Assembly (NCBI GenBank): GCA_021371875.1
Contig: JAJFVH010000107.1
Coordinates: forward strand, 1-43,240
Length of the DNA stretch: 43,240 bases
Reading direction: 5' to 3'
Source: Bacteroidales bacterium
Lineage (GTDB): Bacteria; Bacteroidota; Bacteroidia; Bacteroidales; Paludibacteraceae
This document shows positions 9,435 through 39,111 of the stretch, one piece after another. Position 1 is the first letter of the stretch; each line of letters begins with the position of its first letter. Position numbers and translations under genes: made by a program. A model generated the notes under the pieces. The model saw only the letters and a list, made by a program, of their open reading frames with translations. It was not told the origin of the DNA and did no database searches.

Positions 9435-9440
9435 TTCATT

Positions 9441-12073: not shown

Positions 12074-12081
12074 CAAAATTA
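12074..12081 (-). promoter_or_regulatory. -7 box TAATTTTG upstream of zwf
   Basis: Minus-strand TAnnTTTG match 63 bp before the zwf ATG. A weak CTTG at -33 spacing (12100-12103, plus-strand CAAG) may be the partner. Confidence 0.4.
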
Positions 12082-12242
12082 TATATTATTTAAACATAAC
12101 AAGTGCATGCCGCTTTTGTTTATAGGAAAAAACTTTGTTGTTATAGATTTTTTTTTGCAGAAGACGAACGAGATGCTAAAAATCAAAAAAATAATAATGT
12201 GCAAATGCTTAATGACATACGGTTGCTTTTTTTGGGGGTTGC

Positions 12243-24900: not shown

Positions 24901-27899
24901 TTGAGATACCGTTCAAAGCTGAGTATGATGCAGGTGTTACGGCGCTGTTTACCTTTATGAAGGACGAACAATTCTTTACGCAACAGGTTCAGATTACCCG
25001 AAAAGTGGAAGAAAAGAAACTGACTCCATCACTGAGCGTTTTCCGCGATAAGTTACTGCCCGGCGAAAAAGCAGAGTGGACTGTAACCATTCCTGAAATG
25101 GAAAAAGACAAGAAAACAGCCGAATTGCTTGTAGGTATGTACGATGCTTCGTTGGATGCCATTCGCCCGCATAGCTGGAACTTTAATCCAACATACCAGG
25201 AGGGAATTTTATATTCCGTGCCTTGGTCGGCGAATAATTTCAACAAAAGTAATGGCTATGCGTATTTCGATGTTGATACAAAAGAAGTTTACAATTACCG
25301 GTTTGATCATCTTAATTGGTTTGGACTTGAATTTGGTAGAAGTCATTACGGTAATTCGATCAGGATAAGAGGTGCTAAATCAATAATAGAAAATGATGAG
25401 ATAATTGTTCTTTCTGAAAAAACAGAACGAAAGACAGATATTACAGGAGCAATCGTTGCTAACTCTGAAATAGCTCCTTCATCTGTTCCTGAAGAAATTG
25501 CATTTCAAAAAAATGAAATGGATAAGAATGAAAGACCAAAACCTATTCAGATCCGTACCAATTTCAACGAAACCGCTTTCTTCTATCCGCAGTTTAAAAC
25601 AGATGCCCAGGGCAATGTGAAATTCAGTTTTACTGCTCCCGAAAGCCTGACACGCTGGAATGTGAAAATGCTGGCACATACGCCCGATTTGTATTTCGGA
25701 CAGGCAGAAACACAAGTGATTACTCAAAAAGAACTAATGGTGCAAATGAATCTGCCACGTTTTGTGCGTCGTTCGGATCGGTTAGTATTGACAGCCAATG
25801 TGATCAATCTCACTGAAAAAGAATTGAAAGCAGATGTTACTTTTGAATTGATTGATCCTGCCACGGAAAAGGTAATTTTCACACAAACAAAAAAAGCGCT
25901 CCTCTCATTATGTAAAAGTGCTGTAAACGAGGTTTCCATCCCCTCTCCTCAAGGAGAGGGGGCAGGGGGTGAGGTGGTTTCTTTCGAATTGCCAAACTTT
26001 CCTGATTACGAGCTTCTTATTTGTAAAATCGTTGCCCGTGCCGGAGATTTCAGCGATGGAGAACAAAAATATTTGCCTGTTTTGCCTGACAAAGTTTTGG
26101 TAACCGAAAGCATGCCTCTGACTGTTCGGGGTAATCAAACCCGGACATTCAACTTTGAAAGTCTACTGAAAAACGGTTCAAGCGTTGATACTAAAAATCT
26201 GACAGTGGAATTTTCATCGAATCCGGCGTGGTATGCCGTGCAGGCGTTACCGACTTTGGCCGCACCCGAAAATGATAACGCGTTGGATTGTTTCACCGCT
26301 TATTATGCTAACTCGTTGGCTGCATTTATTGCCAATTCCAATCCAAAATTAGCTTCGACATTCGACCGTTGGAAAAAAGCGGGAGGCAGTCGCCATGCAT
26401 TATTGTCGAATCTGGAGAAAAACACGGAACTGAAAAATATGTTGCTGGAAGAAACACCCTGGGTAATGGCTGCTAAAGATGAAACCGAACAAAAAAAGCA
26501 AATTGCATTGCTGTTCGACTTGAATATGCAGAAAAATCAGGCACAACAATATTTAGATAAATTACTGAAGTTGCAAACCGCTAACGGAGGATTTTCATGG
26601 TTCGAAGGAATGCCCGAAAGCCGTTATATTACGCAGGAAATCATGCTGAATTTGTCCAGGTTAAACCGAATGACCAAATCCAATGCTTTGCCGAAAAGTT
26701 CTGTTGAAAAAGCTTTGTACTATTTGGATTTGGAAATATCGAAAGATTTTGCGGAACTGAGGAAATCCAACAAGAACTACGAAAAAGAAATGTGTATCGA
26801 CAATGTGCAACTATTTTACTTGCATGTCCGTTCGGAATATCCCGAAATTCCCGTGCATGTTTCGGCGCAGGCAGCGTTGAAATACTACACTGCACAATCG
26901 GAAAAATATTGGACAAGTTTCACGCTTTACGGCAAAGCCATGATGGCTGTGGTAGCTAACCGGAACGGTAAAATAAAAGTGGCAAACGATATACTTAAAT
27001 CGTTGAAGGAAAATGCATTGAAGACCAGCGAATTCGGCATGTATTGGGCTAAAAACTCGGCTGGTTATTTCTGGAACGAACGTCCGATAGTCGTGCAAGC
27101 TGCCATTATCGAAGCATTTGCCGAAATATTGAAAAATCCTACTGATGTTGATGAAATGAAAATCTGGTTATTAAAACAAAAGCAAACCCAACGCTGGGAT
27201 TCGCCAATCGCAACTGTAAATGCCATTTACGCGCTGCTTTTGCAGGGCAACGATTGGCTGGCTAATGAAGGCTCGGTTCAGATTAAGCTGGGTGATATGC
27301 AATTGCAACCACAAAGCACCGAAGCCGGAACCGGATATTTCAAAGAAACTATTCCGGTGGCTGATGTTCGTCCGGCAATGGGCAAAGTTACCGTTACAAA
27401 AGCGGATAAAGATATTGGCTGGGGAGCCATGTACTGGCAATATTATCAGGACTTAAATAAAGTGGAAGCGCAAAGCGAAGCAATGAAAATAATTAAAAAG
27501 CTTTTTGTTGAAAAAATAACTCCAACCGGAAAAACCATGTTGCCGATAGAACAAACCAAACTCGTAAAAGGCGACAAAGTGATTACCCGATTGGTAATCA
27601 CGACGGATAGAAATTTGGAATTCGTAGCCTTGAAAGATTTACGTGCTTCCTGCTTCGAGCCTGTAAATCAGCATTCAGGCTGTGCGTGGAAAGAGAATGT
27701 TTGTTATTATCAAACTACCAAAGACGCATCGACACAATTCTTTTTCAATTATTTACCCAAAGGGACTTATGTGTTCGAATATGAACTCTGGACGAACAAC
27801 AGTGGTGAATTTACAAGTGGAATTGCCTTTGTTCAATGCCAGTACGCACCGGAATTTGTGAGTTATACGAGTGCTGGGAAAATTTTGATAAATAATTGA
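21969..27899 (+). CDS. Very large alpha-2-macroglobulin-family protein (1976 aa), no thioester
   Basis: Begins with a signal or anchor segment (KKIFIIVSLAVVVVFGFM) and is probably periplasmic. After a ~380-residue helical N-terminal region come beta-sandwich macroglobulin domains, including the MG2-type RLNLFTDRSLYRQGQTVYFKG (about residues 580-600). The A2M-type segment FYPQFKTDAQGNVKFSFTAPESLTRWNVKM lies near residues 1200-1235, followed by a bait/complement-like region and an alpha-helical toroid (about 1420-1800; GGFSWFEGMPESRYI). The C-x-E-Q thioester of trapping bacterial macroglobulins is absent. Bacterial family members are thought to inhibit proteases or guard the envelope; pbpC, the frequent partner, is not adjacent. 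A GC-rich repeat is inserted in frame near residues 1323-1337. Confidence 0.88.
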   Translation: MKKIFIIVSLAVVVVFGFMRAQKEHNIPIDNRWKTVEQLAEKQLPESALKEVDEILAQAQKEKNQEQVIKAMIYKMRFTLEQDPDKAPELIHEFEIFAEKNSDPVEQALLLSMTAELYAQYYQNDSWTINKRTEVVGFIPENIKEWTKNIYFDKISKLLSASLENPIVLQKNTALKFEELMEKGEDSRILQPTLFDFLAYRKIDILNEITEATNLKNPLDAEVYFAKASQFVTLKLDSIYEKSVENQTLETYQQLFDFHLKEKDAEALIYADLERLQYLKNKTDNSELYLKALNVLEEEYFKNELVIEILAEKANYYLQKSNESDENKPLKKTAYDICADGIMRFPTYKRIDLLKNIQNSITRKSLYVSHNEVLKPASNLAVKINSANIAALQINIYHINATALEYFTFKQNRQNRDQIFPKRTLLETRELKLKADPNFGEVDITLSLKSKEYGIYEICVNTKENPSKDETSNTVFVVSDFGFITRSNIANLQNMYVLDRQTGLQQSKVQVSVYEPKWTGNGYEYKLKSKSISDKKGLCKIPFEANYYETKVFFERGKDKYFSSVSYAYFYNNIPSNSDAPRLNLFTDRSLYRQGQTVYFKGIAYFANKNRNTVDKYSNYEVSLYDVNNQKITSKSFKTNEFGSFAGEFILPEGRLNGASRIESGNFSQTIYVEEYKRPTFEVTIEKPKTEIRFGEKITVAGNVKAYAGYNMGDAKVKYRVVRRPHRYCWWWSEPDKEITNGTTVSDNEGNFEISFLPEKTKNQPHSWRGDFYTYTIYADVTDPKGETQQGKMSVSVGDKSLFIIANVPEKTEKNADSKLEIYTETLNGEQVNSVIDYEVYRLEELSDYVENQDGKTEPKIIEKIASGKFNTSEKRLVLDMKKWKSAQYKLVLKTKDTFGVDVKTEQVFVLYDNDDKRPPVKCYVWMLTPKTTCAVGQKAEIHFGTSTKNSVVLYEIMQGNKVLESKWVKFNDEIKTFEIPFKAEYDAGVTALFTFMKDEQFFTQQVQITRKVEEKKLTPSLSVFRDKLLPGEKAEWTVTIPEMEKDKKTAELLVGMYDASLDAIRPHSWNFNPTYQEGILYSVPWSANNFNKSNGYAYFDVDTKEVYNYRFDHLNWFGLEFGRSHYGNSIRIRGAKSIIENDEIIVLSEKTERKTDITGAIVANSEIAPSSVPEEIAFQKNEMDKNERPKPIQIRTNFNETAFFYPQFKTDAQGNVKFSFTAPESLTRWNVKMLAHTPDLYFGQAETQVITQKELMVQMNLPRFVRRSDRLVLTANVINLTEKELKADVTFELIDPATEKVIFTQTKKALLSLCKSAVNEVSIPSPQGEGAGGEVVSFELPNFPDYELLICKIVARAGDFSDGEQKYLPVLPDKVLVTESMPLTVRGNQTRTFNFESLLKNGSSVDTKNLTVEFSSNPAWYAVQALPTLAAPENDNALDCFTAYYANSLAAFIANSNPKLASTFDRWKKAGGSRHALLSNLEKNTELKNMLLEETPWVMAAKDETEQKKQIALLFDLNMQKNQAQQYLDKLLKLQTANGGFSWFEGMPESRYITQEIMLNLSRLNRMTKSNALPKSSVEKALYYLDLEISKDFAELRKSNKNYEKEMCIDNVQLFYLHVRSEYPEIPVHVSAQAALKYYTAQSEKYWTSFTLYGKAMMAVVANRNGKIKVANDILKSLKENALKTSEFGMYWAKNSAGYFWNERPIVVQAAIIEAFAEILKNPTDVDEMKIWLLKQKQTQRWDSPIATVNAIYALLLQGNDWLANEGSVQIKLGDMQLQPQSTEAGTGYFKETIPVADVRPAMGKVTVTKADKDIGWGAMYWQYYQDLNKVEAQSEAMKIIKKLFVEKITPTGKTMLPIEQTKLVKGDKVITRLVITTDRNLEFVALKDLRASCFEPVNQHSGCAWKENVCYYQTTKDASTQFFFNYLPKGTYVFEYELWTNNSGEFTSGIAFVQCQYAPEFVSYTSAGKILINN
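25938..25979. repeat. In-frame GC-rich palindromic repeat inside the macroglobulin-like gene
   Basis: CCCCTCTCC-tcaa-GGAGAGGGG followed by GCAGGGGGTGAGGTG. Translated as SPQGEGAGGEV between two predicted domains. Same repeat type as the KdsA-KdsC linker. Confidence 0.8.
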
Positions 27900-28046: not shown

Positions 28047-28820
28047 ATGGCAGAAATAGGATATCTAATTCTCGGCATAATAGCAGGTATTTTATCCGGC
28101 TTATTCGGTATCGGCGGTGGAATTGTTATGGTGCCTTCGCTGATCGTTATTTTCGGGATGGATATACTTGATGCCAATGCCACTTCGTTGGCTGCTATGT
28201 TGTTGCCGGTGGGTGCGTTAGGAGTTTGGGCTTATTATAAAGCCGGACTGATTAATATTAAAGATTCATTGTGGATTTCTTTGGGACTGTTTCTGGGTTC
28301 GTTTGCCGGAGGCGAGCTTGCGGTGAATATAAGCGAAAACTTATTGGCTAAGCTGTATGCTGCCATTTTGTTGTATATTGCAGTGAGTTATTTCGATATT
28401 CCACGGTATTTTAAAACGAAAAAAAAGCCAGAGCCAATTAACTGCTCAAACGTTCAGAAACCTTTCTGGGCTTATATTTTAGTAGGAATAGGAGCAGGTA
28501 TTTTTGCAGGGCTTTTTGGTAAAGGTGGCGGGATAATTATTGTTCCTCTGCTGATCGGTATTTTTCATTACGATCCGAAAGCTGCTGCTGCAACCTCTTT
28601 AGCTGCTTTGCAACTGCCGGTTGGTTTGCCGAGCGTATTGATTTATGCCCACGATGGCCATCTCAACATTTTGTATGCTGCACTGATTGCGGTTGGTATT
28701 CTTGCCGGCGCTTTTTTCGGTTCGAAACTCGGAGTGAGATTACCCTCGGCCATGTTTAAAAAAGTGTATGCAGTGTTTTTACTGGCAGTGGCGGTGTTTA
28801 TGGTTTATAAATATATTTAA
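28047..28820 (+). CDS. TauE/SafE family sulfite/organosulfur exporter-like membrane protein
   Basis: The 257-residue integral membrane protein has the duplicated structure of PF01925. GLFGIGGGIVMVPSLIVIFGM in the first half is repeated as GLFGKGGGIIIVPLLIGIF in the second, each followed by ATSLAAM/ATSLAAL. About eight membrane helices are expected. Characterised members move sulfite, sulfoacetate or related anions, but many have unknown substrates. The position about 1.7 kb before the sulfur-linked Crp/DsrE/TusA/Qmo-like cluster is suggestive, but tcdA on the other strand lies between them, so it is not part of that operon. It has its own TAACTTTG box. Confidence 0.88.
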   Translation: MAEIGYLILGIIAGILSGLFGIGGGIVMVPSLIVIFGMDILDANATSLAAMLLPVGALGVWAYYKAGLINIKDSLWISLGLFLGSFAGGELAVNISENLLAKLYAAILLYIAVSYFDIPRYFKTKKKPEPINCSNVQKPFWAYILVGIGAGIFAGLFGKGGGIIIVPLLIGIFHYDPKAAAATSLAALQLPVGLPSVLIYAHDGHLNILYAALIAVGILAGAFFGSKLGVRLPSAMFKKVYAVFLLAVAVFMVYKYI

Positions 28821-29830: not shown

Positions 29831-30508
29831 CTATCCATTCTGACTAATCATCAACAACGATTTTTTATTTAAAATTTCGATTCGTTTTCCGGTTACTATG
29901 ATAATTTTGTCTTTATCAAATTCCGCCAAAACGCGACTCACGCTTTCGCGACTTGTATCTACCAGGTTTGCCAATTCGGCTTGCGAAAGAGGCAAAATAA
30001 AGGCATCCGACATGAAAATTTTATCCGAGAATTCTAACAATGCATCTGCCATATTCCCGCGGATCAATTTTTGTGTGCGGTTGGCACAACGCCGAAACGA
30101 TTCCAGTTCGTTCTGACACAATTCAAGAATAATTTCGTGAGAAAACTCCCTGTTTTCGTTCAAAATATTTTCGAAAACATGTACATCGATAAAACAAACT
30201 TCCACTTCGGTCACGGCTGTTACCGAATATTGATTGATTTTATCTCCGAACGTGGTTGGCAAACCTAGATAGGTAGGAGATTTTACAACCCTGACAATTT
30301 GCTCGTGATACGGACCTGCTAAATGAATTTTCGCCAAGCCGGTGCGCAGAAAAACCACATTGGTGGAATACATGCCCTGTTTGATAATTGTATCACCTTT
30401 TTTGAATTTCAAAACAAGATGATTTTCAGATAATTGTTCGAAACTGCAATCGCTGAGCGTGGCTGCCGCTTTTGAATTAAACGGACAATTTTTACAATCG
30501 TTTTGCAT
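29831..30508 (-). CDS. Crp/Fnr family transcriptional regulator
   Basis: From the ATG at 30508 the 225-residue protein has an N-terminal cysteine pair C5-x2-C8 plus C21, a cyclic-nucleotide-binding-type beta-barrel (LKFKKGDTIIKQGMYSTNVVFLRTG..YLGLPTTFGD), a dimer helix, and a winged helix-turn-helix. The recognition helix TSRESVSRVLAEF matches the R-E-x3-R signature of CRP, which reads TGTGA half-sites; the same stretch also fits the E-x2-S-R pattern of FNR. The cysteines could hold an Fe-S cluster or act as a thiol switch, but this is inference. The frame is open to 30589, but 30508 is preferred because the promoter at 30535-30565 lies inside the longer frame. It is divergent from the DsrE2-TusA-Qmo-like operon. 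Confidence 0.9.
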   Translation of the reverse strand: MQNDCKNCPFNSKAAATLSDCSFEQLSENHLVLKFKKGDTIIKQGMYSTNVVFLRTGLAKIHLAGPYHEQIVRVVKSPTYLGLPTTFGDKINQYSVTAVTEVEVCFIDVHVFENILNENREFSHEIILELCQNELESFRRCANRTQKLIRGNMADALLEFSDKIFMSDAFILPLSQAELANLVDTSRESVSRVLAEFDKDKIIIVTGKRIEILNKKSLLMISQNG

Positions 30509-30534
30509 AAATACCGGGGTGCTTAAATAAGTTG

Positions 30535-30565
30535 CAAATATATACAATGTGATGCAAATCACAAA
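30535..30565 (-). promoter_or_regulatory. Regulator promoter: TTTG-N19-TATATTTG
   Basis: On the minus strand TTTG (30562-30565) and TATATTTG (30535-30542) are separated by exactly 19 bp. The Crp-type palindrome at 30548-30563 lies between them and touches the -33 box, which predicts self-repression. Confidence 0.6.
30548..30563. promoter_or_regulatory. Crp/Fnr-type operator TGTGAT-N4-ATCACA
   Basis: A perfect palindrome, TGTGATGCAAATCACA, in the 158-bp divergent region. It equals the ideal TGTGA-N6-TCACA CRP site. It overlaps the regulator's promoter, and its centre is about 75 bp upstream of the expected transcription start of the dsrE2 operon, a place from which activation is possible. Confidence 0.7.
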
Positions 30566-30617
30566 ATAATGTACTAATATACACATCAAAAAAATGAATT
30601 TTAATACAACTACTCCA

Positions 30618-30625
30618 TATATTTG
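30618..30625 (+). promoter_or_regulatory. -7 box TATATTTG of the dsrE2-tusA-Qmo-like operon
   Basis: Exact TAnnTTTG, 41 bp upstream of the ATG at 30667. The -33 position is poorly matched, as expected for a promoter that needs an activator. Confidence 0.5.
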
Positions 30626-30666
30626 CAGAAAAATTTCTTTAATTAAATTCCTTTAAATTAATAGGT

Positions 30667-31233
30667 ATGGAAAACTCAACAGAACTTACCCTCGAACAAC
30701 TTCAAAAGCAGGTAGAACTCTTGCAAAAAAAAGTTGGAAAACTCGAAAAAAACCGCAAAGACCAACTGGCTATTGCCATTGTTTCGGGCGATATGGACAA
30801 AGTGTTAGCTGCCATGGTTATATCATTAGCCGCTGCTGCTATGGATACGCAAGTAAAACTTTTCTTCTCATTCTGGTCACTTTCAGCTCTTCGCGATCCC
30901 AAGAAAAGTCCGAAAGGAAAAGATTTTATCTCTAAAATGTTTGGTATTATGCTTCCAAAAGGAAAAGACAAACTCAAACTGTCGAATATGAATATGGCTG
31001 GTATGGGTCCGATGATGATTAAAATGTTGATGAAGAAACAAAATGTGCTTTCATTGGACGAAATGTTCAAGCAAGCAGGCGATTTAGGTGTAGAAATCAC
31101 CGTTTGCGAAATGTCGATGGGTTTAATGGGCTTCAAAAAAGAAGAAATGATCGATTATCCGAATCTGCGTTTCGCCGGCGCTGCCACTTTTGTTGCCGAT
31201 GCAGGTGAAAGTGCAATGCAGTTGTTTATCTAA
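30667..31233 (+). CDS. DsrE2-like sulfur-carrier family protein (DsrE/F/H superfamily)
   Basis: The 188-residue protein starts with a short coiled coil (residues ~8-30), followed by the DsrE fold: LAIAIVSGDMDKVLAAMVISLAAAAM, VKLFFSFWSLSALRD, a methionine-rich middle part, LDEMFKQAGDLGVEITVCEMSMGLMGF and the FAGAATFVADAGES end. Cys147 in VCEMS is the only cysteine and sits where DsrE2 proteins carry their persulfide. DsrE2 proteins typically occur beside TusA and Hdr-like complexes and pass protein-bound sulfane sulfur in the cytoplasm. It is the first gene after the Crp-type operator and is followed by tusA. It may serve as sulfur donor or acceptor for the complex encoded downstream. Confidence 0.87.
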   Translation: MENSTELTLEQLQKQVELLQKKVGKLEKNRKDQLAIAIVSGDMDKVLAAMVISLAAAAMDTQVKLFFSFWSLSALRDPKKSPKGKDFISKMFGIMLPKGKDKLKLSNMNMAGMGPMMIKMLMKKQNVLSLDEMFKQAGDLGVEITVCEMSMGLMGFKKEEMIDYPNLRFAGAATFVADAGESAMQLFI

Positions 31234-31238
31234 AAAAT

Positions 31239-31365
31239 GCCCCCTAACCCCCTAAAGGGGGAATATAGATGATAGCTTCAGTTATTAACAAAACAAAAAC
31301 TAATTTAAAAAACAAATAATCCAAAGACTTACACTTTATTCCCCCCTTTAGGGGGTTAGGGGGCA
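31239..31365. repeat. Inverted palindromic repeat pair, dsrE2/tusA junction
   Basis: Arms at 31239-31262 (GCCCCCTAACCCCC-taaa-GGGG) and 31339-31365 (its reverse complement with one extra C). The spacer contains AAAACTAATTTAAAA. The pair runs from just after the dsrE2 stop to 21 bp before tusA. Confidence 0.85.
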
Positions 31366-31385
31366 AGTTCTAATAACTTACAATT

Positions 31386-31637
31386 ATGACAACCGAAGAA
31401 TTAAAAAACGTAAAATCGAATTTAGTAGTTGATGCCCGTGGAACAGCTTGTCCGGGTCCACTTTTAGCAGCCAAAAAGGCAATTGGCGATATTGAATCAG
31501 GCGAAATTTTGGAAGTGCTTTCAGCCGATGAAGGAACCAAGAACGATATTCCACGCTGGTGCGAAAAAGTTGGTCACGAATATCTTGGTTTTTATGACGA
31601 AGATAGTTTTAGCCGCCTATTTTTAATCAAAGAATAA
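31386..31637 (+). CDS. tusA: TusA-family sulfurtransferase
   Basis: The 83-residue cytoplasmic sulfur carrier has the signature VVDARGTACPGPLLAAKKAI with the sulfur-binding Cys22 in a C-P-x-P motif. It continues with the usual beta-alpha-beta pattern GEILEVLSADEGTKNDIPRWCEKVGHEYLG. TusA holds sulfane sulfur as a persulfide and hands it to partners such as DsrE proteins or Hdr-like complexes. Here it lies between the DsrE2-like gene and the Hdr/Qmo-like genes, so a role in energy or sulfur metabolism is more likely than tRNA thiolation (no TusBCDE genes are seen). Repeat pairs flank it on both sides. Confidence 0.93.
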   Translation: MTTEELKNVKSNLVVDARGTACPGPLLAAKKAIGDIESGEILEVLSADEGTKNDIPRWCEKVGHEYLGFYDEDSFSRLFLIKE

Positions 31638-31765
31638 AGCCCCATCAAACCTTCCCTATGGGGAGGCTTAAAGACTTATTCTCTGAAATTGAGAAACTAA
31701 TTTACAGAAACTAATTTTAATATAGCTAACCCAAAAGTTCCCCTTCGGGGGATTTAGGGGGCTTT
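31635..31765. repeat. Inverted palindromic repeat pair, tusA/FlpD junction
   Basis: Left arm about 31635-31672 (AAAGCCCCATC..CCC-tat-GGGGAGGC, diverged), right arm about 31735-31765 (AAGTTCCCC-ttc-GGGGGATTTAGGGGGC). The spacer holds AAACTAATTTTAATA just before the right arm. Confidence 0.75.
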
Positions 31766-31771
31766 ACCACT

Positions 31772-32170
31772 ATGTCAACATCACCCAAGATTTTGGTTTT
31801 TTCGACCGATAAAATATCCGACCCGGGAATTGACCAGGCAGGTTTGCGTAAAATACATTACGCGCCTTCCGTTTATGTTATCAGTTTACCATGTTCGTCC
31901 GGCATCAAGCCCAGATGGATTTTACATGCATTGGAAAATGGCTTTGATGGCGTTTTCATTGCTGCAGATGGCCATGAATGTTCCTATAGTGCACGATGTG
32001 CTGACCACACAAATACCATTGTGGAAACAACTCAGGAACTTATGAAAGAGAAAAATATTAATCCCAGACGTGTGCGTATGGCTGCACTTTGCTCAGTGTG
32101 TGCCGAACCTTTTATGAATCACATGGAAAATTACGGGAAAATTTTAGCAGGGTTAGAAGAAGCCCCCTAA
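31772..32170 (+). CDS. FlpD/MvhD-type iron-sulfur protein (hydrogenase iron-sulfur subunit family)
   Basis: The 132-residue protein resembles the delta subunit that connects hydrogenase or formate dehydrogenase to HdrA in methanogens, and the C-terminal domain of QmoB. ILVFSTDK at the start, RWILHALENGFDGVFIAADG in the middle and NINPRRVRMAALCSVCAEPFMNHMEN near the end fit PF02662. Its cysteines are C41, C70, C76 and a C107-x2-C110 pair. The usual G-C-x-x-G-x-C-H-Y segment is changed to GHECSYSARC, so the cluster may differ from the classical [2Fe-2S]. Its stop lies inside the next repeat arm. It probably docks to one of the two HdrA-like proteins encoded next. Confidence 0.8.
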   Translation: MSTSPKILVFSTDKISDPGIDQAGLRKIHYAPSVYVISLPCSSGIKPRWILHALENGFDGVFIAADGHECSYSARCADHTNTIVETTQELMKEKNINPRRVRMAALCSVCAEPFMNHMENYGKILAGLEEAP

Positions 32171-32310
32171 ATCCCCCGAAGGGGGACTTTAATAATAGTA
32201 TTGATTATCAAAATAGAGAATCAGAATTTTATGAATAATGATAAAAATATAAAAAAAGATACTAACTCAAACTTCCCCCCTTCGGGGGGATTGAGGGGGA
32301 CTTCTGGGGG
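32158..32310. repeat. Inverted palindromic repeat pair, FlpD/HdrA junction, overlapping both genes
   Basis: The left arm (about 32158-32190) covers the last codons and stop of the FlpD gene. The right arm (about 32270-32310) lies inside the HdrA/GltD reading frame and encodes about NFPPSGGLRGTSGG. The spacer contains AGATACTAACTCAAA before the right arm. Confidence 0.8.
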
Positions 32311-35095
32311 TTACGATGCATTAGTTATCGGAGGCGGAATTGCCGGTCAGGAAGCTGCTTTAAGCCTTGCTGATATGGGTCATGAAGTACTTTTAGTGGA
32401 TAAAGCCTTATCCATCGGCGGTAAAATGATTCAGCTCAGTAAAGTGTTCCCAACGCTGGACTGTGCGGCCTGTATTACCACTCCGAAAATGTCGGAAACC
32501 GCTCGCCACCCTAACATCACGCTTGCACTCAACAGCGAGATTGACGGTATTACGAAAGAGGGAGATGATTTTAATGTGCAAATCTCGAAAAAAGCCCGTT
32601 ACATTATACCTGAAGATTGCACCGGTTGTGCCGAGTGCGAAGCGGTTTGTCCCGAAGTACGCAGCGATGATTATAATGCCAACCTTGCAGGACGTAAAGT
32701 GGCTTATATTCCTTTCAATCTCGCTAATCCTCGTATTGCCACTATCGACCGTCAGGATCATTCTGCTCCTTGTATCAACGAATGTCCGGGAGGCGTAAAA
32801 CCTTATGGATACATTACCTTGGCACGCAACGGACAATATGAAGAAGCCATGAAGCTTCACCTCGAAGATATTCCTTTTCCCGGAAGTTTGGGTCGTGCCT
32901 GTTACGCTCCTTGTCAGAATGCTTGTACACGTGCAAGTCTGGAAGCTGCAGTGGACATTCGCAAAACTAAACGCTTTTTTGCCGACTGGTATTACGAAAA
33001 ATATCCCGAAGCTCCTGCAGTGGAAATTAAAAATAAGACTGACAAGAAAATTGCCGTAATCGGTTCGGGTCCTGCCGGAATCACTGCTGCTTATCATTTG
33101 GCTTTGAAAGGTCATACAGTGACTATTTTCGAAGCTGCTCCTGCTGCCGGTGGAATGTTACGCTTGGCTTTGCCGGAATATCGTGCACCTAAAAGCGTGG
33201 TCGATCGCGATTTGAAAAATATCACCGTTTTGGGTGTAAAAATAGAAGTAAACAAAAAAATTACCGATTTGAAAGCCTTGAAAAAAGAAGGTTATGATGC
33301 CGTTTTCGTTTCGGTTGGAACACACGATGCAGTTTCATCAAAAACGGAAGGTTCGGATTTGGCAGGTGTTGTGGATTGCCTTCATTTTCTTCGTGAAGCC
33401 AATATCGGTAAAAAAGAAGACCTGAAAGGCAAACGCGTGATGGTGATTGGTGGTGGTAACACAGCCATTGATGCTGCCCGCACCTCATTGCGTTTGGGCG
33501 CTGAAAAAGTAACGGTTGTTTACCGTCGCAGCCGTGAAGAAATGCCATGTTTTGCTCCTGAAATTCACGAAGCGGAAGAAGAAGGGGTGGAAATTATGAT
33601 ACTCCGCAATCCGGTGAAATACATGGGCGAAGAAGGCCAAATCAAACAGGTTCAATTAGTAAAAATGCAGTTAGGCGAAAAAGATGCCAGCGGTCGTCGT
33701 AGTCCTGAACCTGTAAAAGGTTCGGAATATATCGAAAATGTAGATTATGTAATCGAAGCTATCGGTTTGAAACCTTCCACTTCACCTTTTGCGGGACAAA
33801 TTGATTTGAATAAAAACGGAACAATTGTAGCCGACAAAAAAACGCTGCAAACTTCTGTTGATTATATTTTTGCAGGTGGCGATACAGTTACAGGTGCAAC
33901 CACTTTGATTGAAGCGGCCGGACAAGGTAAAAAAGCTGCTTTCTACATGGACAAATACTTACGTGATTTGAACATGGAAGATTTTGAAGATGGCGACAAA
34001 CTGCCCGCTATTGATAAAAGCAAGGTTCTCAGCAAATACAACGGCAAAGTACAACCGGCTGTTCCGGGTGGTATGATGCCGCTTGCACAACGTGCAACAA
34101 GTTGGGAGGAAGTGGAACAAACATTTACCGAAGCCGAATTGAAAGCCAGCACCGAACGCTGCCTGGATTGCAGTAATTGCCGCGAATGTCACCAGTGTGT
34201 GGCTGCCTGTCCGTCGAATGCGATTGATTTTAGTCAGAAAACACAGGTGATCAATACAACCGTAAAATCGGTAGTGCTAACAACAGGTTACAAACTGTTC
34301 CCTCCAACGGGAAAACCGAATTACGGTTATGCAAAATATGCTAACGTGATTGATTCCATGCAAATGGACCGCCTCATTGCACCAACACGTCCGTTCAACA
34401 ATGTGCTTCGTCCGGGAGATGGGAAAACGCCGGATAATATTGCGTACGTGCTTTGTACCGGTTCGCGTGACTCGGCTATTGAGAATTCAGGTTGTGGCGC
34501 CGATTGTGAAAATAATCCGATTTGCTCGCAAATTTGCTGTATGTATTCCATTAAGCAAGCGCAATTATTGATGGGTGCGTTGCCCATGGCCGATATCACC
34601 ATTTATTATATGGATATCCGTGCATTTGGTAAAGGTTATGAGGAATTTTTCCAGGAAGCTAAATCGATGGGAGTGAACTTTGTAAAAGGGAAAGTGGCTA
34701 AAATCCGAGAGAACGAAAATGGAAGCGGCGACCTGATTATTCGTTACGAAGATGTTACCAAAGGCATTGTAAAAGAAGCCAAACACGATGTGGTGGTACT
34801 TTCGGTAGGTGTTGTTCCAAATAAAGAAATTCCGCAAATGTTCAAAAATCAGTTACTGGAACTGGACGCTTTCAACTTTGTAAAACAAACCGATGAATTG
34901 ATAAGCCCTTCATTGACAAGTATCGAAGGAGTTTATGTGGCGGGAGCTGCTTCAGGACCAAAAGATATCCCTGATTCAATTTTGTCGGCGGGCGCTGCTG
35001 CTTCGGAAGTTGCTGGATATTTGAATAGAAGAACCAGCCCCCTAAATCCCCCGAAGGGGGACTTCAAGAGGGAAAAGTCTTTGAAATTGCAATAA
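32231..35095 (+). CDS. HdrA/QmoA-like flavoprotein with an inserted GltD/NfnB-type NAD(P)H-flavin module
   Basis: Numbering is from the first open codon (TTG 32201); ATG 32231 is residue 11 and is the likely start. An HdrA-type FAD site comes first: GGGIAGQEAALSLADMGHEV (44-63), C88/C91 in DCAACITTPKM, and a [4Fe-4S] motif C140-x2-C143-x2-C146-x3-C150. A full glutamate-synthase small-subunit/NfnB module follows: cysteines 191, 195, 234, 238 and 242; FAD loop GSGPAG (288-293); NAD(P)H loop GGGNTA (417-422); FAGGD (557-561). Next is a cysteine-dense ferredoxin motif (654, 657, 660, 663, 666, 670). The HdrA fold then resumes, with C752, C765, C769, C775 and CC779-780. Two FADs, a nucleotide site and several clusters would suit NAD(P)H-coupled, perhaps bifurcating, electron transfer. 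The last residues are repeat-encoded. Confidence 0.87.
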   Translation: MNNDKNIKKDTNSNFPPSGGLRGTSGGYDALVIGGGIAGQEAALSLADMGHEVLLVDKALSIGGKMIQLSKVFPTLDCAACITTPKMSETARHPNITLALNSEIDGITKEGDDFNVQISKKARYIIPEDCTGCAECEAVCPEVRSDDYNANLAGRKVAYIPFNLANPRIATIDRQDHSAPCINECPGGVKPYGYITLARNGQYEEAMKLHLEDIPFPGSLGRACYAPCQNACTRASLEAAVDIRKTKRFFADWYYEKYPEAPAVEIKNKTDKKIAVIGSGPAGITAAYHLALKGHTVTIFEAAPAAGGMLRLALPEYRAPKSVVDRDLKNITVLGVKIEVNKKITDLKALKKEGYDAVFVSVGTHDAVSSKTEGSDLAGVVDCLHFLREANIGKKEDLKGKRVMVIGGGNTAIDAARTSLRLGAEKVTVVYRRSREEMPCFAPEIHEAEEEGVEIMILRNPVKYMGEEGQIKQVQLVKMQLGEKDASGRRSPEPVKGSEYIENVDYVIEAIGLKPSTSPFAGQIDLNKNGTIVADKKTLQTSVDYIFAGGDTVTGATTLIEAAGQGKKAAFYMDKYLRDLNMEDFEDGDKLPAIDKSKVLSKYNGKVQPAVPGGMMPLAQRATSWEEVEQTFTEAELKASTERCLDCSNCRECHQCVAACPSNAIDFSQKTQVINTTVKSVVLTTGYKLFPPTGKPNYGYAKYANVIDSMQMDRLIAPTRPFNNVLRPGDGKTPDNIAYVLCTGSRDSAIENSGCGADCENNPICSQICCMYSIKQAQLLMGALPMADITIYYMDIRAFGKGYEEFFQEAKSMGVNFVKGKVAKIRENENGSGDLIIRYEDVTKGIVKEAKHDVVVLSVGVVPNKEIPQMFKNQLLELDAFNFVKQTDELISPSLTSIEGVYVAGAASGPKDIPDSILSAGAAASEVAGYLNRRTSPLNPPKGDFKREKSLKLQ

Positions 35096-35148
35096 AATTA
35101 TTACGAAACTAATTAAAAAGTCCCCCTTCGGGGGATTTAGGGGGCTAT
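35035..35148. repeat. Inverted palindromic repeat pair, HdrA-GltD/QmoB-like junction
   Basis: Arms about 35035-35064 and 35117-35148 are reverse complements of the AGCCCCCTAAATCCCCC-gaa-GGGGG type. The left arm and following bases encode the last ~20 residues of the HdrA/GltD protein (SPLNPPKGDF..). The right arm ends at the ATG of the next gene. The spacer holds GAAACTAATTAAAA. Confidence 0.87.
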
Positions 35149-37404
35149 ATGAAACAAAGAATAGGTGTATATATTTGTCATTGCGGCGGAAATATTTCCG
35201 ATTACGTAGATGTGGAAGAGTTGGGCAAAATGTTCCATCAGGAGGAAAACGTTGTTGTTTCCAAAGACGTAATGTTTGCGTGTGCCGACTCTAACCAAAA
35301 AGACATGGTCAGTGACATACAGGCAAATAATCTGGATGCTATCGTGGTTTGCTCTTGCTCGCCAAAATTGCATTTACATACTTTCAAGAATGTGGCGATA
35401 CGTGCGGGTTTGAATCCTTCGAACTATGTGCAGGTAAATATCCGCGAGCAATGTTCGTGGCCACACAGCGACCGTCCACGTGAAGCAACCGTAAAAGCAG
35501 CCGGACTTATCCGTGCCGGCATCAACCGCGTGTCGTATTCCGAATCGTTGGAAAACATTGAACTATCGGTAAAAAAATCGGCATTGGTGATTGGGGCAGG
35601 GGTTTCGGGCATGAAAGCGGCCATCGATCTGGCTCGCTCGGGCAACGAAGTTTTCCTGATAGAGAAAGATTATTTTGTAGGCGGACGCGTTGCCCAGAAA
35701 GAAATTCTTTTCCCAACTAATCAGAATGGAAAAGAAGTGGTGGCAGCGCTTTACAATGAAATGAAAAAGTTTCCGAACATCACTATTTTCACCGGAGCAA
35801 CGGTTGAAAAAGTATCGGGTAGTTTGGGAAATTTCAACGTAGACATAAAAGTAAAACCACGTTATATCAACCCGAATGCAGATAAAAAAGCCGTTAAACG
35901 TGCTATGGACGAATGTCCTGTGAACGTTCATGACGATTTTAACCTGGGATTAATTGAACGCAAAGCCATTTATAAAAATTACCCCGAAGCGTTGCCGGAT
36001 GTGCCGGTAGTGGTGGCAGAAGCGTTGAAAGATGCTACTGATTTTACAGGAAAATTTGCTTCCACGCTTAATTTGAACGAAGAAGCGCAAACGCTTTCGT
36101 TGATTGCCGGTTCGGTGTTGGTAACTACCGGTTACGATCATTATCAACCCAAAGAAGGTGAATTTGGCTACAAGACTATTTCGAATGTAGTGACATTGCC
36201 GGAGCTAAACCGTTTGATGGAAATGAATTCCGGCAAACTGGTTTACAATGGTAAAAAAATCAACAGTGTCGCATTTATCTATTGCGTGGGAAGCCGTCAG
36301 ACCAAAGGTGATAATAAATATTGTTCTCGCCAGTGCTGTACTTCTACCATACATACCTCATTGCAACTGAAAGAAAAATACAAAGATATCCAGACTTACC
36401 ACCTGTACCGCGATATTCGCACGTATGGTAAACAGGAATTGATATATGCCGAGTCTTCAAAACAAGGCGATTTGTATTTTAAATACGAAGAAAAAGAAAT
36501 GCCGGTTGTAGCCTCTCCCAGCCTCTCCAAAGGAAAGGGGAAAGACAAAGTTCTGATAAAAGTCAAAGATTATTTGACAGCCAAAAAAGAAATGGAAATT
36601 GAAGCTGATTTGGTCGTGTTAGTTACCGGCATGGTGGCTCGCGAAGATGCAACGCACATTTCTGAACTATTCAAAATTCCGATTGGACGCGATAAATTCT
36701 TCAACGAGATTCACCCTAAACTGAAACCGGTTGAAACGGTTATCAAAGGCGTGTATATCGGCGGAACCTGCCAGGGACCGAAGAACGTAAGCGAATCGGT
36801 TCAATCGTCATTGGCAGGTGCTTCAAAAATTACTGCATTGCTCAAAAGCGGCACTGTTTCGGTCGACCCGATTATTGCCCGCGTAAATGCCGATGCTTGT
36901 ACCTGGTGCGGAAAATGCTCGGATGTGTGCGATTATACGGCTATCAAAGAAGTCCTCTTTGGCAATAAACACGTGGCTGGTGTTAACAAAGCGGTTTGTA
37001 CCGGTTGCGGAATTTGTGCTCCGGTTTGTCCTGAAAATGCCATTGAAATTGCTCAATATACCGATAATGAAATTGAATCGATGATTGACGGATTTATGAT
37101 GGATTTTGATATCAAAGAAAAAGGAGCAGGCGAAACCGAAGATGTTCTTACTCCCCCTTCAGGGGGTGGGGGGCAGGCCATGAAAGAATATCCACAGGTT
37201 TGGCGCGAAATCCTTGCCGGCATGACTGACGAGAAAAACACGATTCCTGAAATTGCTGCTAATTCCAGACTTGCCAGTGAACTGGTTACCTTCCACCTGA
37301 TGACCATGAACAAATACGGCGTAGTGGTTCCGGCAGGTATGGATGAGAAGGAAACGTACTATTATTATAAACAGCCCCCTAAATCCCCTAAAGGGGGATT
37401 TTAA
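35149..37404 (+). CDS. HdrA/QmoB-like iron-sulfur flavoprotein, 751 aa
   Basis: A complete HdrA-type subunit. Its N-terminal domain is RIGVYICHCGGNISDYVDVEEL with VCSCSPKLHLHTF. The FAD loop is GAGVSGMKAAIDLARSG (149-165). The cysteine set C379, C392 and CC396-397 is where HdrA binds its own [4Fe-4S] cluster. A ferredoxin pair follows at C584-x2-C587-x2-C590-x3-C594 and C617-x2-C620-x2-C623-x3-C627. A ~120-residue helical tail, lacking the FlpD domain of canonical QmoB, closes the protein; the separate FlpD gene upstream may replace it. Repeats are inserted in frame near residues 453-466 and 668-676, and the last ten residues are repeat-encoded. Between the HdrA/GltD and QmoC-like genes, it is probably the central electron-transfer subunit. 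CoB/CoM chemistry is not implied. Confidence 0.88.
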   Translation: MKQRIGVYICHCGGNISDYVDVEELGKMFHQEENVVVSKDVMFACADSNQKDMVSDIQANNLDAIVVCSCSPKLHLHTFKNVAIRAGLNPSNYVQVNIREQCSWPHSDRPREATVKAAGLIRAGINRVSYSESLENIELSVKKSALVIGAGVSGMKAAIDLARSGNEVFLIEKDYFVGGRVAQKEILFPTNQNGKEVVAALYNEMKKFPNITIFTGATVEKVSGSLGNFNVDIKVKPRYINPNADKKAVKRAMDECPVNVHDDFNLGLIERKAIYKNYPEALPDVPVVVAEALKDATDFTGKFASTLNLNEEAQTLSLIAGSVLVTTGYDHYQPKEGEFGYKTISNVVTLPELNRLMEMNSGKLVYNGKKINSVAFIYCVGSRQTKGDNKYCSRQCCTSTIHTSLQLKEKYKDIQTYHLYRDIRTYGKQELIYAESSKQGDLYFKYEEKEMPVVASPSLSKGKGKDKVLIKVKDYLTAKKEMEIEADLVVLVTGMVAREDATHISELFKIPIGRDKFFNEIHPKLKPVETVIKGVYIGGTCQGPKNVSESVQSSLAGASKITALLKSGTVSVDPIIARVNADACTWCGKCSDVCDYTAIKEVLFGNKHVAGVNKAVCTGCGICAPVCPENAIEIAQYTDNEIESMIDGFMMDFDIKEKGAGETEDVLTPPSGGGGQAMKEYPQVWREILAGMTDEKNTIPEIAANSRLASELVTFHLMTMNKYGVVVPAGMDEKETYYYYKQPPKSPKGGF
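36511..36545. repeat. In-frame GC-rich repeat within the QmoB-like gene (1)
   Basis: CCTCTCCCAGCCTCTCC-aaa-GGAAAGGGG; translated as ASPSLSKGKGK inside a surface-like loop between conserved strands. Confidence 0.6.
37148..37178. repeat. In-frame GC-rich repeat within the QmoB-like gene (2)
   Basis: ACTCCCCC-ttca-GGGGGTGGGGGGC; translated as TPPSGGGGQ, joining the ferredoxin region to the C-terminal helical tail. Confidence 0.7.
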
Positions 37405-37488
37405 GAAAAGAGATTCTTTACAAAATGAGAAATACAAAAATCAATACTAATTTTAATTCCTCCCCTTCGGGGAGGTTAGGAGGGGCTT
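37371..37488. repeat. Inverted palindromic repeat pair, QmoB-like/QmoC-like junction
   Basis: The left arm about 37371-37402 encodes the final residues (QPPKSPKGGF) and reaches the stop codon. The right arm about 37457-37488 ends directly before the ATG at 37490. The spacer includes AATACTAATTTTAATT just before the right arm. Confidence 0.85.
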
Positions 37489-37489
37489 T

Positions 37490-38536
37490 ATGTCAAGAGT
37501 AAATCCAAAATTTGCAACTGAATTATCAAAATATGGGTCGGACGACTTCAATGCTTGTTTCAATTGCGGAAACTGTACGGCAACCTGTTCGCTTTCGACT
37601 GCCGACAGTTCGTTTCCACGCGAAATGATTCGTTACGCCACGCTCGGGTTGGAAGACGATATCAAAGCGTCGCTCAAACCCTGGGAATGTTATTATTGCG
37701 GCGAATGCAGTGCTGAATGTCCCCGTCAGGCAAGTCCGGGCGAGTTGATGATGTCGCTGCGACGTTATCTTACCGCTCAATACGACTGGACAGGTTTTTC
37801 GGGGCTTATGTATAAATCATTGCACGTAAGTCTGGCGGCATTTATCCTGACTTTTGTCGGCGTAATAGTATTCGTGGCATCGGTAGGCTTTGAACTGGAA
37901 AAAATGATGCATTTTGGCCATCTGTTCGAAATGATAGCCATTGGTACCGTAGGTCTGCTTATTTTGATGCCAAACGTGGCGCGTATGTGGTATTTCACTA
38001 TTCTGAAGCCAAAAGTGAAAGTGCCGCTTATGAAGTATGTAAAGAGTATGGGCGAATTGTTTATTCACATGTTTACCCAGAAACGCGCACTGGGGTGCGA
38101 CGATAATCAATTCCGGTGGTTCGAACATTTTATACTGGTTATCGGGTATCTGTCGTTGCTGTTCACCACAGTAGTTTTGAACTGGTTCGGGTCGCCTTAT
38201 TTGTTTGTAATCATTTTAGGATATGTAATGAGCGCCATAGTTTTCGTGGTAACCATCGATTTTGTTTCGAGCCGCATCAAGCAAAAGAAACAGGTGAGCA
38301 AACACTCCCAACCTTCGGATATATTTTTCGTGGTATGGTTGTTTCTAATGGGCTTAACTGCTTTTATGGTTCGCCTGTTTATCGACCTCGATATCCTGGA
38401 AACGAATAAATGGCTGTATATTTTCCATCTCACCGTATTGGTGCAATGGGCGCTGATTATAGTTCCATTTGGTAAATGGACACACTTCCTGTACCGTTCG
38501 TTCGCTATGTATTTTGCGAAACTGAAGGAGAAATAA
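37490..38536 (+). CDS. QmoC-like membrane protein: HdrC-type [4Fe-4S] domain fused to a heme-b-type membrane domain
   Basis: Residues 1-95 are HdrC-like with two cluster motifs, C23-x2-C26-x2-C29-x3-C33 (CFNCGNCTATC) and C67-x2-C70-x2-C73-x3-C77 (CYYCGECSAECP). Residues ~104-345 form about six membrane helices with histidines suited to heme b: H112, H141/H144, H213 in FEHFILVIGY, H313 in FHLTVLVQW and H332. This cytoplasmic-cluster plus HdrE/NarI-type arrangement is that of QmoC, the quinone-reactive subunit of the Qmo complex of sulfate reducers. It is the last gene of the operon and would connect the two HdrA-like proteins to the quinone pool. Its ATG follows a repeat arm by one base. The 348-aa length is slightly below usual QmoC size. 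Confidence 0.88.
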   Translation: MSRVNPKFATELSKYGSDDFNACFNCGNCTATCSLSTADSSFPREMIRYATLGLEDDIKASLKPWECYYCGECSAECPRQASPGELMMSLRRYLTAQYDWTGFSGLMYKSLHVSLAAFILTFVGVIVFVASVGFELEKMMHFGHLFEMIAIGTVGLLILMPNVARMWYFTILKPKVKVPLMKYVKSMGELFIHMFTQKRALGCDDNQFRWFEHFILVIGYLSLLFTTVVLNWFGSPYLFVIILGYVMSAIVFVVTIDFVSSRIKQKKQVSKHSQPSDIFFVVWLFLMGLTAFMVRLFIDLDILETNKWLYIFHLTVLVQWALIIVPFGKWTHFLYRSFAMYFAKLKEK

Positions 38537-38751: not shown

Positions 38752-38832
38752 AACTATAAATTAGGACACATTGCGGATAATCATTATAAATAATATGATG
38801 ATTTGATGATGCGGTAATGTGATGATTAAAAG

Positions 38833-38868
38833 AACCGGCTGAATTTCTGAGAGGAAATTCAGCCGGTT
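38833..38868 (+). terminator. Strong intrinsic terminator, 15-bp perfect stem
   Basis: AACCGGCTGAATTTC (38833-38847), 6-nt loop, GAAATTCAGCCGGTT (38854-38868), then TTAGTTTTATTCTTTT. It lies about 300 bp after the QmoC-like gene and can stop its transcript. The reverse strand also has a T-rich tail, so it may serve rlpA too. Confidence 0.75.
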
Positions 38869-39111
38869 TTAGTTTTATTCTTTTATTTTTGGCAATTTGA
38901 CACACCAGAGGTAGAAAATCTTTATTTAATCGCGAGGGTTAATCATTATTTGCTTTCTTAATTTCACTGTGTTACACGGTATAATTTTCCCGTTTCCCAT
39001 CTAAAAGGCTTGCATATTGAATAAAAGCCTAGGATATAATACACTTTTTATCAACAATGTATGTGTTTTTCAACAAGTCCTAAATTATATTAACTGCAAA
39101 AGGAAGCCGGA

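What the first reader, a model, noticed from the sequence alone, without database searches (positions are those of the whole stretch)
29831..38536. Crp-controlled DsrE2-TusA-FlpD-HdrA/GltD-HdrA-QmoC gene set: a possible NAD(P)H-quinone-sulfur-carrier complex
Seen: six same-strand genes behind a divergent Crp/Fnr regulator combine two protein-persulfide carriers with a FlpD-type Fe-S protein, two HdrA-like flavoproteins and a QmoC-like membrane subunit. Known: QmoABC joins quinones to AprBA in sulfate reducers; sHdr clusters use DsrE2/TusA/Lbp2A-type carriers in sulfur oxidation; Hdr complexes bifurcate electrons. Inference: this is a hybrid of these systems in a Bacteroidota, linking NAD(P)H, menaquinone and sulfane sulfur, used for reducing or oxidising polysulfide, thiosulfate-derived or protein-bound sulfur. 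aprAB, sat, dsrAB and lbp genes are not visible in the window.
Basis: partly seen in the sequence, partly recalled or inferred. Interest (0 to 1): 0.88.

Follow-up and report, generated by a model that had tools for sequence, protein, structure and literature searches.

The report
Quinone-linked Hdr complex with sulfur carriers
Many anaerobic Bacteroidales seem to carry an undescribed, jointly regulated gene set that looks like the quinone-linked Qmo complex of sulfate reducers but is joined to protein sulfur carriers instead of sulfate enzymes, which may give these fermenters an overlooked way to respire or recycle reduced sulfur.

Summary
A Paludibacter-group MAG has dsrE2-tusA-flpD-hdrA(with GltD insert)-hdrA-qmoC behind a divergent Crp gene. 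The order is complete in 61 of 80 named loci; the marker FlpD is in 68 of 393 genomes of the order. All 69 distinct divergent spacers hold TGTGA-N6-TCACA with at most one mismatch, 57 exactly; shuffles gave no exact site. It is no ordinary Qmo: aprA is below cut-off in G000, dsrA in 35 of 35 genomes, sat absent in 34 of 34. The parts match QmoA, QmoB, QmoB's MvhD domain (here a separate gene) and QmoC. FlpD has five invariant cysteines unlike MvhD's. The NAD(P)H module is optional, and within the genus the hdrA genes of the two versions are not sisters. Most likely a menaquinone-linked Hdr complex exchanging electrons with TusA-bound sulfane sulfur, probably reducing it to sulfide; GltD adds NADPH (YRR motif in 68 of 69). 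Complex, substrate, site and direction are inferred. Nine library searches listed no description of it.

The parts
29831..30508 (-). Crp/Fnr-family regulator, divergent; three nearly invariant cysteines (numbered C32, C35, C132 on the longer listed ORF)
   Evidence: Pfam cNMP_binding + HTH_Crp_2; C32 86/86, C35 85/86, C132 86/88 distinct sequences; start from relatives
30548..30563 (.). operator TGTGATGCAAATCACA (TGTGA-N6-TCACA)
   Evidence: only exact match in the window; exact in 57 and one mismatch in 12 of 69 distinct divergent spacers, 0 exact in shuffles
30667..31233 (+). DsrE2-like sulfur carrier, invariant Cys147
   Evidence: PF13686 9.3e-44; C147 in 96/96 distinct sequences; nearest solved structure 3pnx 'putative sulfurtransferase dsrE'; below the NCBIfam DsrE2 cut-off (60 of 210 bits)
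31386..31637 (+). TusA sulfur carrier, CPGP Cys22, second Cys59
   Evidence: PF01206 3.4e-21; C22 105/105, C59 100/105 distinct sequences
31772..32170 (+). FlpD/MvhD-like connector with a remodelled set of five cysteines (C41, C70, C76, C107, C110)
   Evidence: PF02662; five Cys 109/109 distinct sequences; aligned to 5odc_D and to QmoB's C-terminal domain; fold match to 5odh_D from a model of moderate confidence
32231..35095 (+). QmoA-like HdrA flavoprotein with an inserted GltD/NfnB-like NADP(H) module (about residues 176-640 of the 955-aa query)
   Evidence: PRK12771 at 176-679 and HdrA2 at 644-934; 32% to a canonical QmoA without the insert; YRR motif
35149..37404 (+). HdrA/QmoB-like flavoprotein with N-terminal Cys domain, two C-terminal [4Fe-4S] motifs and a winged-helix tail
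   Evidence: NF040770 571 bits; 438 bits to 5odc_A; 129 and 76 bits to a canonical QmoB; tail aligned to the separate small gene
37490..38536 (+). QmoC-like membrane subunit: HdrC-like two [4Fe-4S] motifs plus hydrophobic segments with three invariant His
   Evidence: NF038018 150 bits; 8 Cys and H213 92/92, H313 and H332 91/91, shared with canonical QmoC
38831..38870 (+). terminator-like hairpin 295 bp behind qmoC
   Evidence: 18-pair stem, scan (consensus match only)

Best explanation
A Crp-controlled operon for a membrane-bound Hdr/Qmo-type complex that moves electrons between the menaquinone pool and sulfane sulfur carried on TusA/DsrE2. QmoC (haem-type membrane part plus HdrC-like clusters) exchanges electrons with quinone; the QmoA-like and QmoB-like HdrA flavoproteins pass them through FAD and Fe-S clusters; FlpD, which in methanogen Hdr complexes is the connector to hydrogenase or formate dehydrogenase, is here rebuilt with three new cysteines and would be the docking and redox point for persulfidated TusA. 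Most likely net reaction: carrier-S-SH + 2 e- to carrier-SH + sulfide, i.e. disposal of electrons onto polysulfide, elemental or cysteine-derived sulfur. In the window's version an inserted GltD module lets NADPH contribute electrons (confurcation with menaquinol); in the other version it is absent and the core still stands. Shown: gene content, order, operator, invariant residues, optional GltD, lack of aprA/sat/dsrA over the cut-offs. Inferred: complex formation, substrate, direction, FlpD-TusA contact.
For: Order conserved. Operator in 69 of 69 distinct divergent spacers at <=1 mismatch. Parts match QmoA, QmoB, QmoB's MvhD domain and QmoC of the apr-qmoABC locus of G418. No aprA over cut-off in G000 or 17 genus genomes, no sat in 34, no dsrA over cut-off in 35, so the Apr/Sat/Dsr routes of oxidation are not open there. 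G832 holds canonical qmoABC on one contig and this core on another, and G418 has both too: a different job from Qmo. HdrA-GltD relatives with a classical FlpD stand beside a NiFe hydrogenase (L058) or MetVF-like genes (L057); passages of PMC12350162 state that MvhD connects Mvh or Fdh to Hdr. In 8 of 89 loci a dsrC with both end cysteines and DsrM/K- or Hmc-like genes stand upstream. GltD has YRR in 68 of 69 distinct copies; PMC7596348 ties YRR to NADP(H) and to DsrL-2, the type found with reductive DsrAB and at times with oxidative DsrAB (abstract and passages). 7 of 10 genomes of the Petrimonas genome's genus carry this FlpD; the Petrimonas IBARAKI genome has no PF00384 match; PMC9695182 calls Petrimonas an S0 reducer (passages).
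Against: No catalytic site for sulfur was shown; the FlpD model is weak just where it matters (mean pLDDT 68.8, residues 105-114 under 50). Menaquinol alone is too oxidising to reduce elemental sulfur at standard potentials (recalled), so GltD-less versions need another driving force or run the other way. DsrE2 is not constant: the window's DsrE2 finds a match in 12 of 20 GltD-less loci. Rhodanese genes (L218, L225) and a YeeE-type transporter (L218) near two loci fit oxidation as well. The single-contig genome G409 of the genus has no match to the fused protein at E<=1e-110, so the set is accessory. In G000 itself dsrC was not found. FlpD, DsrE2 and QmoC trees do not reject one Paludibacter clade, so the exchange is shown only for the two hdrA genes. 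G000 is 88% complete: a missing gene may lie outside the bin.
Confidence: 0.5

Rival explanations
1. Same complex run in the oxidative direction: sulfide or thiol-bound sulfur is oxidised to carrier-bound sulfane sulfur, electrons go to menaquinone and, where GltD is present, are bifurcated to NADP+.
For: Rhodanese genes near two of 20 GltD-less loci and a Sulf_transp (YeeE-type) gene in L218; an SQR-like gene in L052 by eye (only a generic Pyr_redox_2 match). Works without NADPH, which suits the GltD-less versions. Potentials allow it (recalled).
Against: No dsrA, aprA or sat to carry oxidation further; YRR motif as in DsrL-2 (not exclusive to reducers); Petrimonas is called an S0 reducer.
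Confidence: 0.25
2. Sulfur (or selenium) delivery for biosynthesis or thiol redox balance: the Hdr part keeps TusA/DsrE2/DsrC thiols reduced, with no respiratory role.
For: PLP cysteine-desulfurase-like genes in 18 of 89 loci, one over the TIGR01977 cut-off; the TusA family serves tRNA and cofactor sulfur (known).
Against: A haem-type membrane subunit is needless for that; molybdopterin enzymes (PF00384) are without a match in 10 of 16 genomes tested, G000 among them, so no Mo-cofactor demand of that kind there.
Confidence: 0.12
3. A plain NADPH:menaquinone dehydrogenase; sulfur carriers only happen to be co-transcribed.
For: NADP(H) module and QmoC in one gene set.
Against: GltD is the part that varies while TusA stands next to FlpD in 19 of the 20 GltD-less loci (L232 is cut there); FlpD's five cysteines stay invariant in both versions.
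Confidence: 0.08
4. Ordinary QmoABC feeding APS reductase encoded elsewhere.
For: Homology of all three subunits to QmoABC.
Against: aprA below cut-off in G000 and 17 genus genomes, sat absent in 34 of 34, QmoC under the family cut-off, both systems together in G418 and G832.
Confidence: 0.02

Closest known systems
QmoABC of sulfate reducers and Chlorobi
   Same: QmoA-like, QmoB-like and QmoC-like subunits; QmoB's MvhD domain matches FlpD; Fe-S Cys and three His of QmoC shared
   Different: no AprA/Sat found; FlpD is its own gene; HdrA2 scores higher with methanogen HdrA; QmoC under cut-off; TusA/DsrE2 in the gene set; optional GltD insert
Type II Qmo (Neukirchen 2023, PMC10504309; passages)
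   Different: the passages shown say nothing of TusA or DsrE2 beside it and 'Bacteroid' does not occur in the main text; FlpD and GltD were not searched there; I had no type II sequences for a tree
HdrABC-MvhAGD / Fdh / MetVF bifurcating complexes
   Same: HdrA plus FlpD connector; L058 and L057 show HdrA-GltD with classical FlpD beside a NiFe hydrogenase and MetVF-like genes
   Different: no HdrB, hydrogenase, formate dehydrogenase or MetVF in the cluster; FlpD cysteines differ
DsrL-2 (NADPH:acceptor oxidoreductase of DsrAB; PMC7596348, abstract and passages)
   Same: GltD/NfnB-type NADPH module with YRR motif serving a sulfur enzyme
   Different: here built into an HdrA; no DsrA found
YTD cluster / DsrEFH type II (PMC9751629, PMC8780430, PMC13293266; passages)
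   Same: TusA with DsrE-type carriers in anaerobes
   Different: YTD is described as yedE, tusA, dsrE (DsrEFH II), without Hdr/Qmo genes
sHdr (Hdr-like sulfur oxidation with LbpA; recalled, listing of PMC6067878)
   Same: Hdr proteins with DsrE/TusA carriers
   Different: no HdrB or lbpA next to this cluster

Membership tests
Canonical QmoABC | QmoA, QmoB (with MvhD domain), QmoC in one operon | tested here: inconclusive
   all parts present as homologues, 26-32% identity, QmoB split, QmoC 150 bits against a 300-bit cut-off
Canonical QmoABC | partner AprAB (with Sat) in the genome | tested here: not met
   aprA below cut-off in G000 and 17 genus genomes, sat without match in 34 genomes; aprB not searched
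Type II Qmo | qmoAB nearer to hdrA than to bacterial qmoAB | tested here: inconclusive
   HdrA2: 438 bits to 5odc_A (phmmer), 129 and 76 bits to one canonical QmoB (blastp); no tree with named type II sequences
HdrABC (methanogen type) | HdrB catalytic subunit with CCG domains beside HdrA/HdrC | tested here: not met
   no such gene between 29831 and 38536; not searched genome-wide
HdrABC (methanogen type) | FlpD/MvhD with CxxWC and GC cysteines | tested here: not met
   these are lost, five Cys (two old, three new) invariant
sHdr sulfur oxidation | HdrB/HdrC pairs and lipoate-binding protein LbpA in the cluster (recalled) | tested here: not met
   none between 29831 and 38536; lbpA in the rest of the genome not tested
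TusA / DsrE2 persulfide carriers | conserved sulfur-binding cysteine | tested here: met
   TusA C22 105/105; DsrE2 C147 96/96 distinct sequences
NADP(H)-dependent GltD/NfnB module | FAD fold and YRR motif for NADP phosphate | tested here: met
   PRK12771 484.7 bits (cut-off 516, so just under); YRR 68 of 69 distinct copies; activity not testable
Electron bifurcation/confurcation | flavin splitting electrons between two partners | not testable with these tools
   inferred only

The most novel reading that the evidence does not exclude
A new class of cytoplasmic sulfur respiration enzyme: a menaquinone:TusA-persulfide oxidoreductase in which FlpD, rebuilt with a five-cysteine site, takes the place of the hydrogenase connector and handles sulfur directly, found in about a sixth of sampled genomes of the order and serving as a Mo-free sulfur reductase of fermenters such as Petrimonas. 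In one group of loci it is joined to DsrC and a DsrMK-like pair, in genomes without DsrA where tested.
Probability: 0.4. Interest if true: 0.87.

Novelty: new variant of a known kind. Interest (0 to 1): 0.78.

Why it matters
If right, a large and little suspected part of the Bacteroidales can use sulfur as electron sink or source without the genes now used as markers of sulfur metabolism, so surveys based on dsr, apr, sox, psr or phs would miss it. It also makes an open question testable: how Hdr-type flavoproteins act on protein persulfides, using paired natural versions with and without the NADPH module, and how fermenters such as Petrimonas reduce sulfur.

Tried and rejected
Ordinary Qmo: rejected after aprA, sat and dsrA searches. 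A weak aprA match in G000 (21.6 bits against a 641.75 cut-off) was read as an unrelated flavoprotein; four genus genomes have weak dsrA matches (at most 40.1 bits against 392.85), read as other sulfite-reductase-like proteins. YTD cluster: rejected, described without Hdr genes. FNR-type operator TTGAT-N4-ATCAA: 0 hits; TGTGA-N6-TCACA came out instead. The first spacer count (30 of 64) used the long Crp start, which cut part of the spacers; one search replaces it. At up to two mismatches the motif is at chance level in the window (21 against 18.1 expected). The clade test on FlpD, DsrE2 and QmoC did not reject one Paludibacter clade; only the two HdrA genes did (AU p 0.0077 and 5.85e-5), and the two groups were named after I had seen the identity drop, so these p values are not blind; L172 and L173 are long rows there. 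The FlpD quick tree drew the versions far apart, but the AU test did not back that. In some searches L168 was labelled unfused though its state was undetermined. The FlpD model gave no coordinates to measure cysteine distances. The phylum search around G831 for reference Qmo gave only 2 of 77 genomes over the cut-off; L198-L200 gave poor ORF calls by my simple caller and were left out of the trees. Tree sets: 54, 53 loci and 50/48 rows of 116 gathered; incomplete loci dropped, L201/L202 as duplicates. The counts (e.g. FlpD 112/112) held repeats of the same contigs and left out L057, L058, L181, L196; one search recounts on distinct sequences with 20 more loci, still without L057/L058, whose FlpD has the classical pattern. 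A slip in my scripts took the wrong record as window, so the window was missing from those sets; it was added by hand and read rightly. The YRR count (62 of 63) came from a pattern; one search is the aligned recount. One search reports matches only at E<=1e-110.
Full report
WHAT IS THERE. The window is contig 13 of a 2.97-Mb, 233-contig MAG, 87.9% complete. Its nearest named kin are Paludibacter sp. MAGs (L101's contig has the length of the same-genus G801 contig). The first flavoprotein is an HdrA whose FAD half and ferredoxin half are parted by a GltD/NfnB-like module (PRK12771 at 176-679, HdrA2 at 644-934). The second is a nearly full HdrA. The last is QmoC-like.

IT IS A CONSERVED UNIT. 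In 27 of 31 loci from genus, order and phylum relatives all six genes recur in order (L051 and L082 are cut, L057 and L058 differ). In 61 of the 80 all seven blocks stand in order on one strand. The FlpD marker is in 68 of 393 sampled genomes of the window's order (taken to be Bacteroidales), 51 of 207 genera; the fused hdrA-gltD, E<=1e-140, in 13 of 393, one of them (G788) a far relative. In the phylum sample 3 of 395 genomes, G000 included, show a match over the whole fusion; the other two stand in other surroundings. The set is accessory: 13 of 48 genus genomes have no match at the limit.

REGULATION. Between the Crp gene and dsrE2 lies TGTGATGCAAATCACA (30548-30563), the only exact TGTGA-N6-TCACA in the window. 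In 87 loci with both genes, 74 have them divergent within 700 bases, 69 distinct spacers; all 69 have the site with at most one mismatch, 57 exactly, while shuffled spacers average 0.38 at one mismatch and none exact. The regulator keeps three cysteines (86/86, 85/86, 86/88 distinct sequences), which suggests, but does not show, a redox or sulfur sensor.

TWO VERSIONS AND AN EXCHANGED CORE. Inside the genus, 19 of 35 genomes with a match have the fused gene (three of them in pieces) and 16 match only outside GltD. Twenty loci that I picked from other families among the hits (19 genomes, G764 with two; one is the second copy in G718) carry a GltD-less core with a separate winged-helix gene of about 92 aa; in the window that domain is the tail of the second HdrA. 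Identity to the window, fused against GltD-less genus loci: DsrE2 81-96 and 72-87, QmoC 71-92 and 73-84, Crp 66-96 and 62-80, but TusA 86-100 and 58-63, FlpD 86-94 and 59-63, second HdrA 66-93 and 46-52. Trees of the two HdrA proteins put the GltD-less genus form with other GltD-less lineages and reject a single Paludibacter clade (AU p 0.0077 and 5.85e-5); DsrE2, QmoC and FlpD do not reject it (p 0.239, 0.577, 0.595). On the HdrA trees GltD changed state at least 3 or 4 times. So NADPH input is an option on a core of FlpD, two HdrA and QmoC, with TusA in 19 of the 20 further loci (the other is cut) and a DsrE2 match in 12.

NOT AN ORDINARY QMO. aprA is under cut-off in G000 and all 17 genus genomes searched; one of 30 relatives, G418, has a true apr-qmoABC locus. 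Against it the window proteins match QmoA (32%), QmoB (29% in the best stretch), QmoB's C-terminal MvhD domain (FlpD, 27%) and QmoC (26%). sat has no match in 34 of 34 genomes including G000, G418 and Petrimonas IBARAKI; dsrA is under cut-off in 35 of 35. G418 carries the GltD-less cluster too (L215), and G832, in the phylum of the MAG labelled Deltaproteobacteria, holds flpD-hdrA/gltD-hdrA-qmoC-dsrE on one contig and qmoABC on another, so the two systems have different work.

FLPD. The MvhD-type FlpD of L057 and L058 carries CxxC near the start, one Cys, and GC-x-x-GxC; PDB chain 5odc_D is alike. Here the first motif and one Cys are gone; C41 and C70 stay; C76, C107 and C110 are new; all five are invariant in 109 of 109 distinct sequences of both versions (far relatives left out). 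L058 has NiFe-hydrogenase genes and L057 MetF-, MetV- and HdrB-like genes beside it. The fold search puts the model nearest to 5odh_D and 5odc_D, with low confidence at 105-114. In known complexes MvhD is the connector to the electron donor (PMC12350162, passages). Where donor genes stand in those operons, tusA and dsrE2 stand here. That swap is the main reason for placing TusA at FlpD; it is inference.

DIRECTION. For reduction: no aprA, sat or dsrA for further oxidation; YRR motif for NADP(H) in 68 of 69 distinct GltD modules, as in DsrL-2, which goes with reductive and at times with oxidative DsrAB (PMC7596348, abstract and passages); in 8 of 89 loci dsrC with both end cysteines, DsrM/HmcE- and DsrK/HmcF-like genes and cysteine-desulfurase-like genes stand upstream, and the two of these whose genomes were searched, G608 and G479, have no dsrA match; Petrimonas is called an S0 reducer in print (PMC9695182 and PMC11664143, passages), 7 of 10 genomes of the IBARAKI genome's genus have this FlpD, and IBARAKI, like G000, has no PF00384 match, which speaks against Psr/Phs/Ttr types there but not against other sulfur reductases. 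Against: GltD-less versions would have only quinol as the visible donor, weak for sulfur (recalled), and sulfur-import-type genes near two loci fit oxidation. I put reduction at about two to one.

PRINT. Searches for the gene combination, for Petrimonas/Paludibacter sulfur physiology and for MvhD/QmoB listed no paper whose title or abstract start describes this cluster, nor did the passages that I read; subscription papers are mostly not held. [quoted passage not shown] The main text of the Petrimonas mucosa multiomics paper holds neither 'heterodisulfide' nor 'elemental sulfur' (PMC7768429, find).

VERDICT. A real, widespread, regulated and, as far as searched, undescribed variant of the Hdr/Qmo kind, with sulfur carriers as probable partner. 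Function is a supported proposal, not a demonstration.

Noticed in passing
window 31230-31291, 31311-31369, 31713-31766, 32153-32214, 32245-32303, 35028-35089, 35096-35149, 37152-37167, 37365-37426, 37430-37488: Short palindromic repeats (CCCCCTAAATCCCCCGAAGGGGG type) sit between and inside the operon's genes: 8 overlapping pattern hits at four places against 0.16 expected, repeat families D1, D2, D4. Some lie in frame near the ends of the two HdrA ORFs.
   Followed up: partly
L181 (G418:C54) 5841-12175: A genome of the same order, 99% complete, has qmoABC beside aprA but no sat match.
   Followed up: partly
L131, L133, L148, L153, L154, L167, L168, L170, upstream of the cluster: dsrC plus DsrM/HmcE-like and DsrK/HmcF-like genes and cysteine-desulfurase-like genes before this cluster; no dsrA match in the two genomes tested.
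   Followed up: partly
L076 8752-9249; L153 15202-15633; L160 1779-2144: Extra DsrE-family proteins inside or near the cluster, the first two with a signal- or lipoprotein-like start by eye.
   Followed up: no
window 28047-28820: TauE/SafE family exporter upstream; kept near the cluster in a few genus loci.
   Followed up: no
L058 6182-14914: qmoC, a tandem HdrA-GltD-HdrA of 1490 aa, classical FlpD and NiFe-hydrogenase genes: a possible quinone- and NADP-linked Hdr hydrogenase.
   Followed up: partly
L047 and L234 (G718); L232 and L233 (G764): One genome holds both versions of the cluster and another two GltD-less copies, L232 on a cut contig.
   Followed up: no
window 21969-27899: A 1976-aa ORF upstream that looks like a bacterial alpha-2-macroglobulin-type protein (by eye, no family search).
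   Followed up: no
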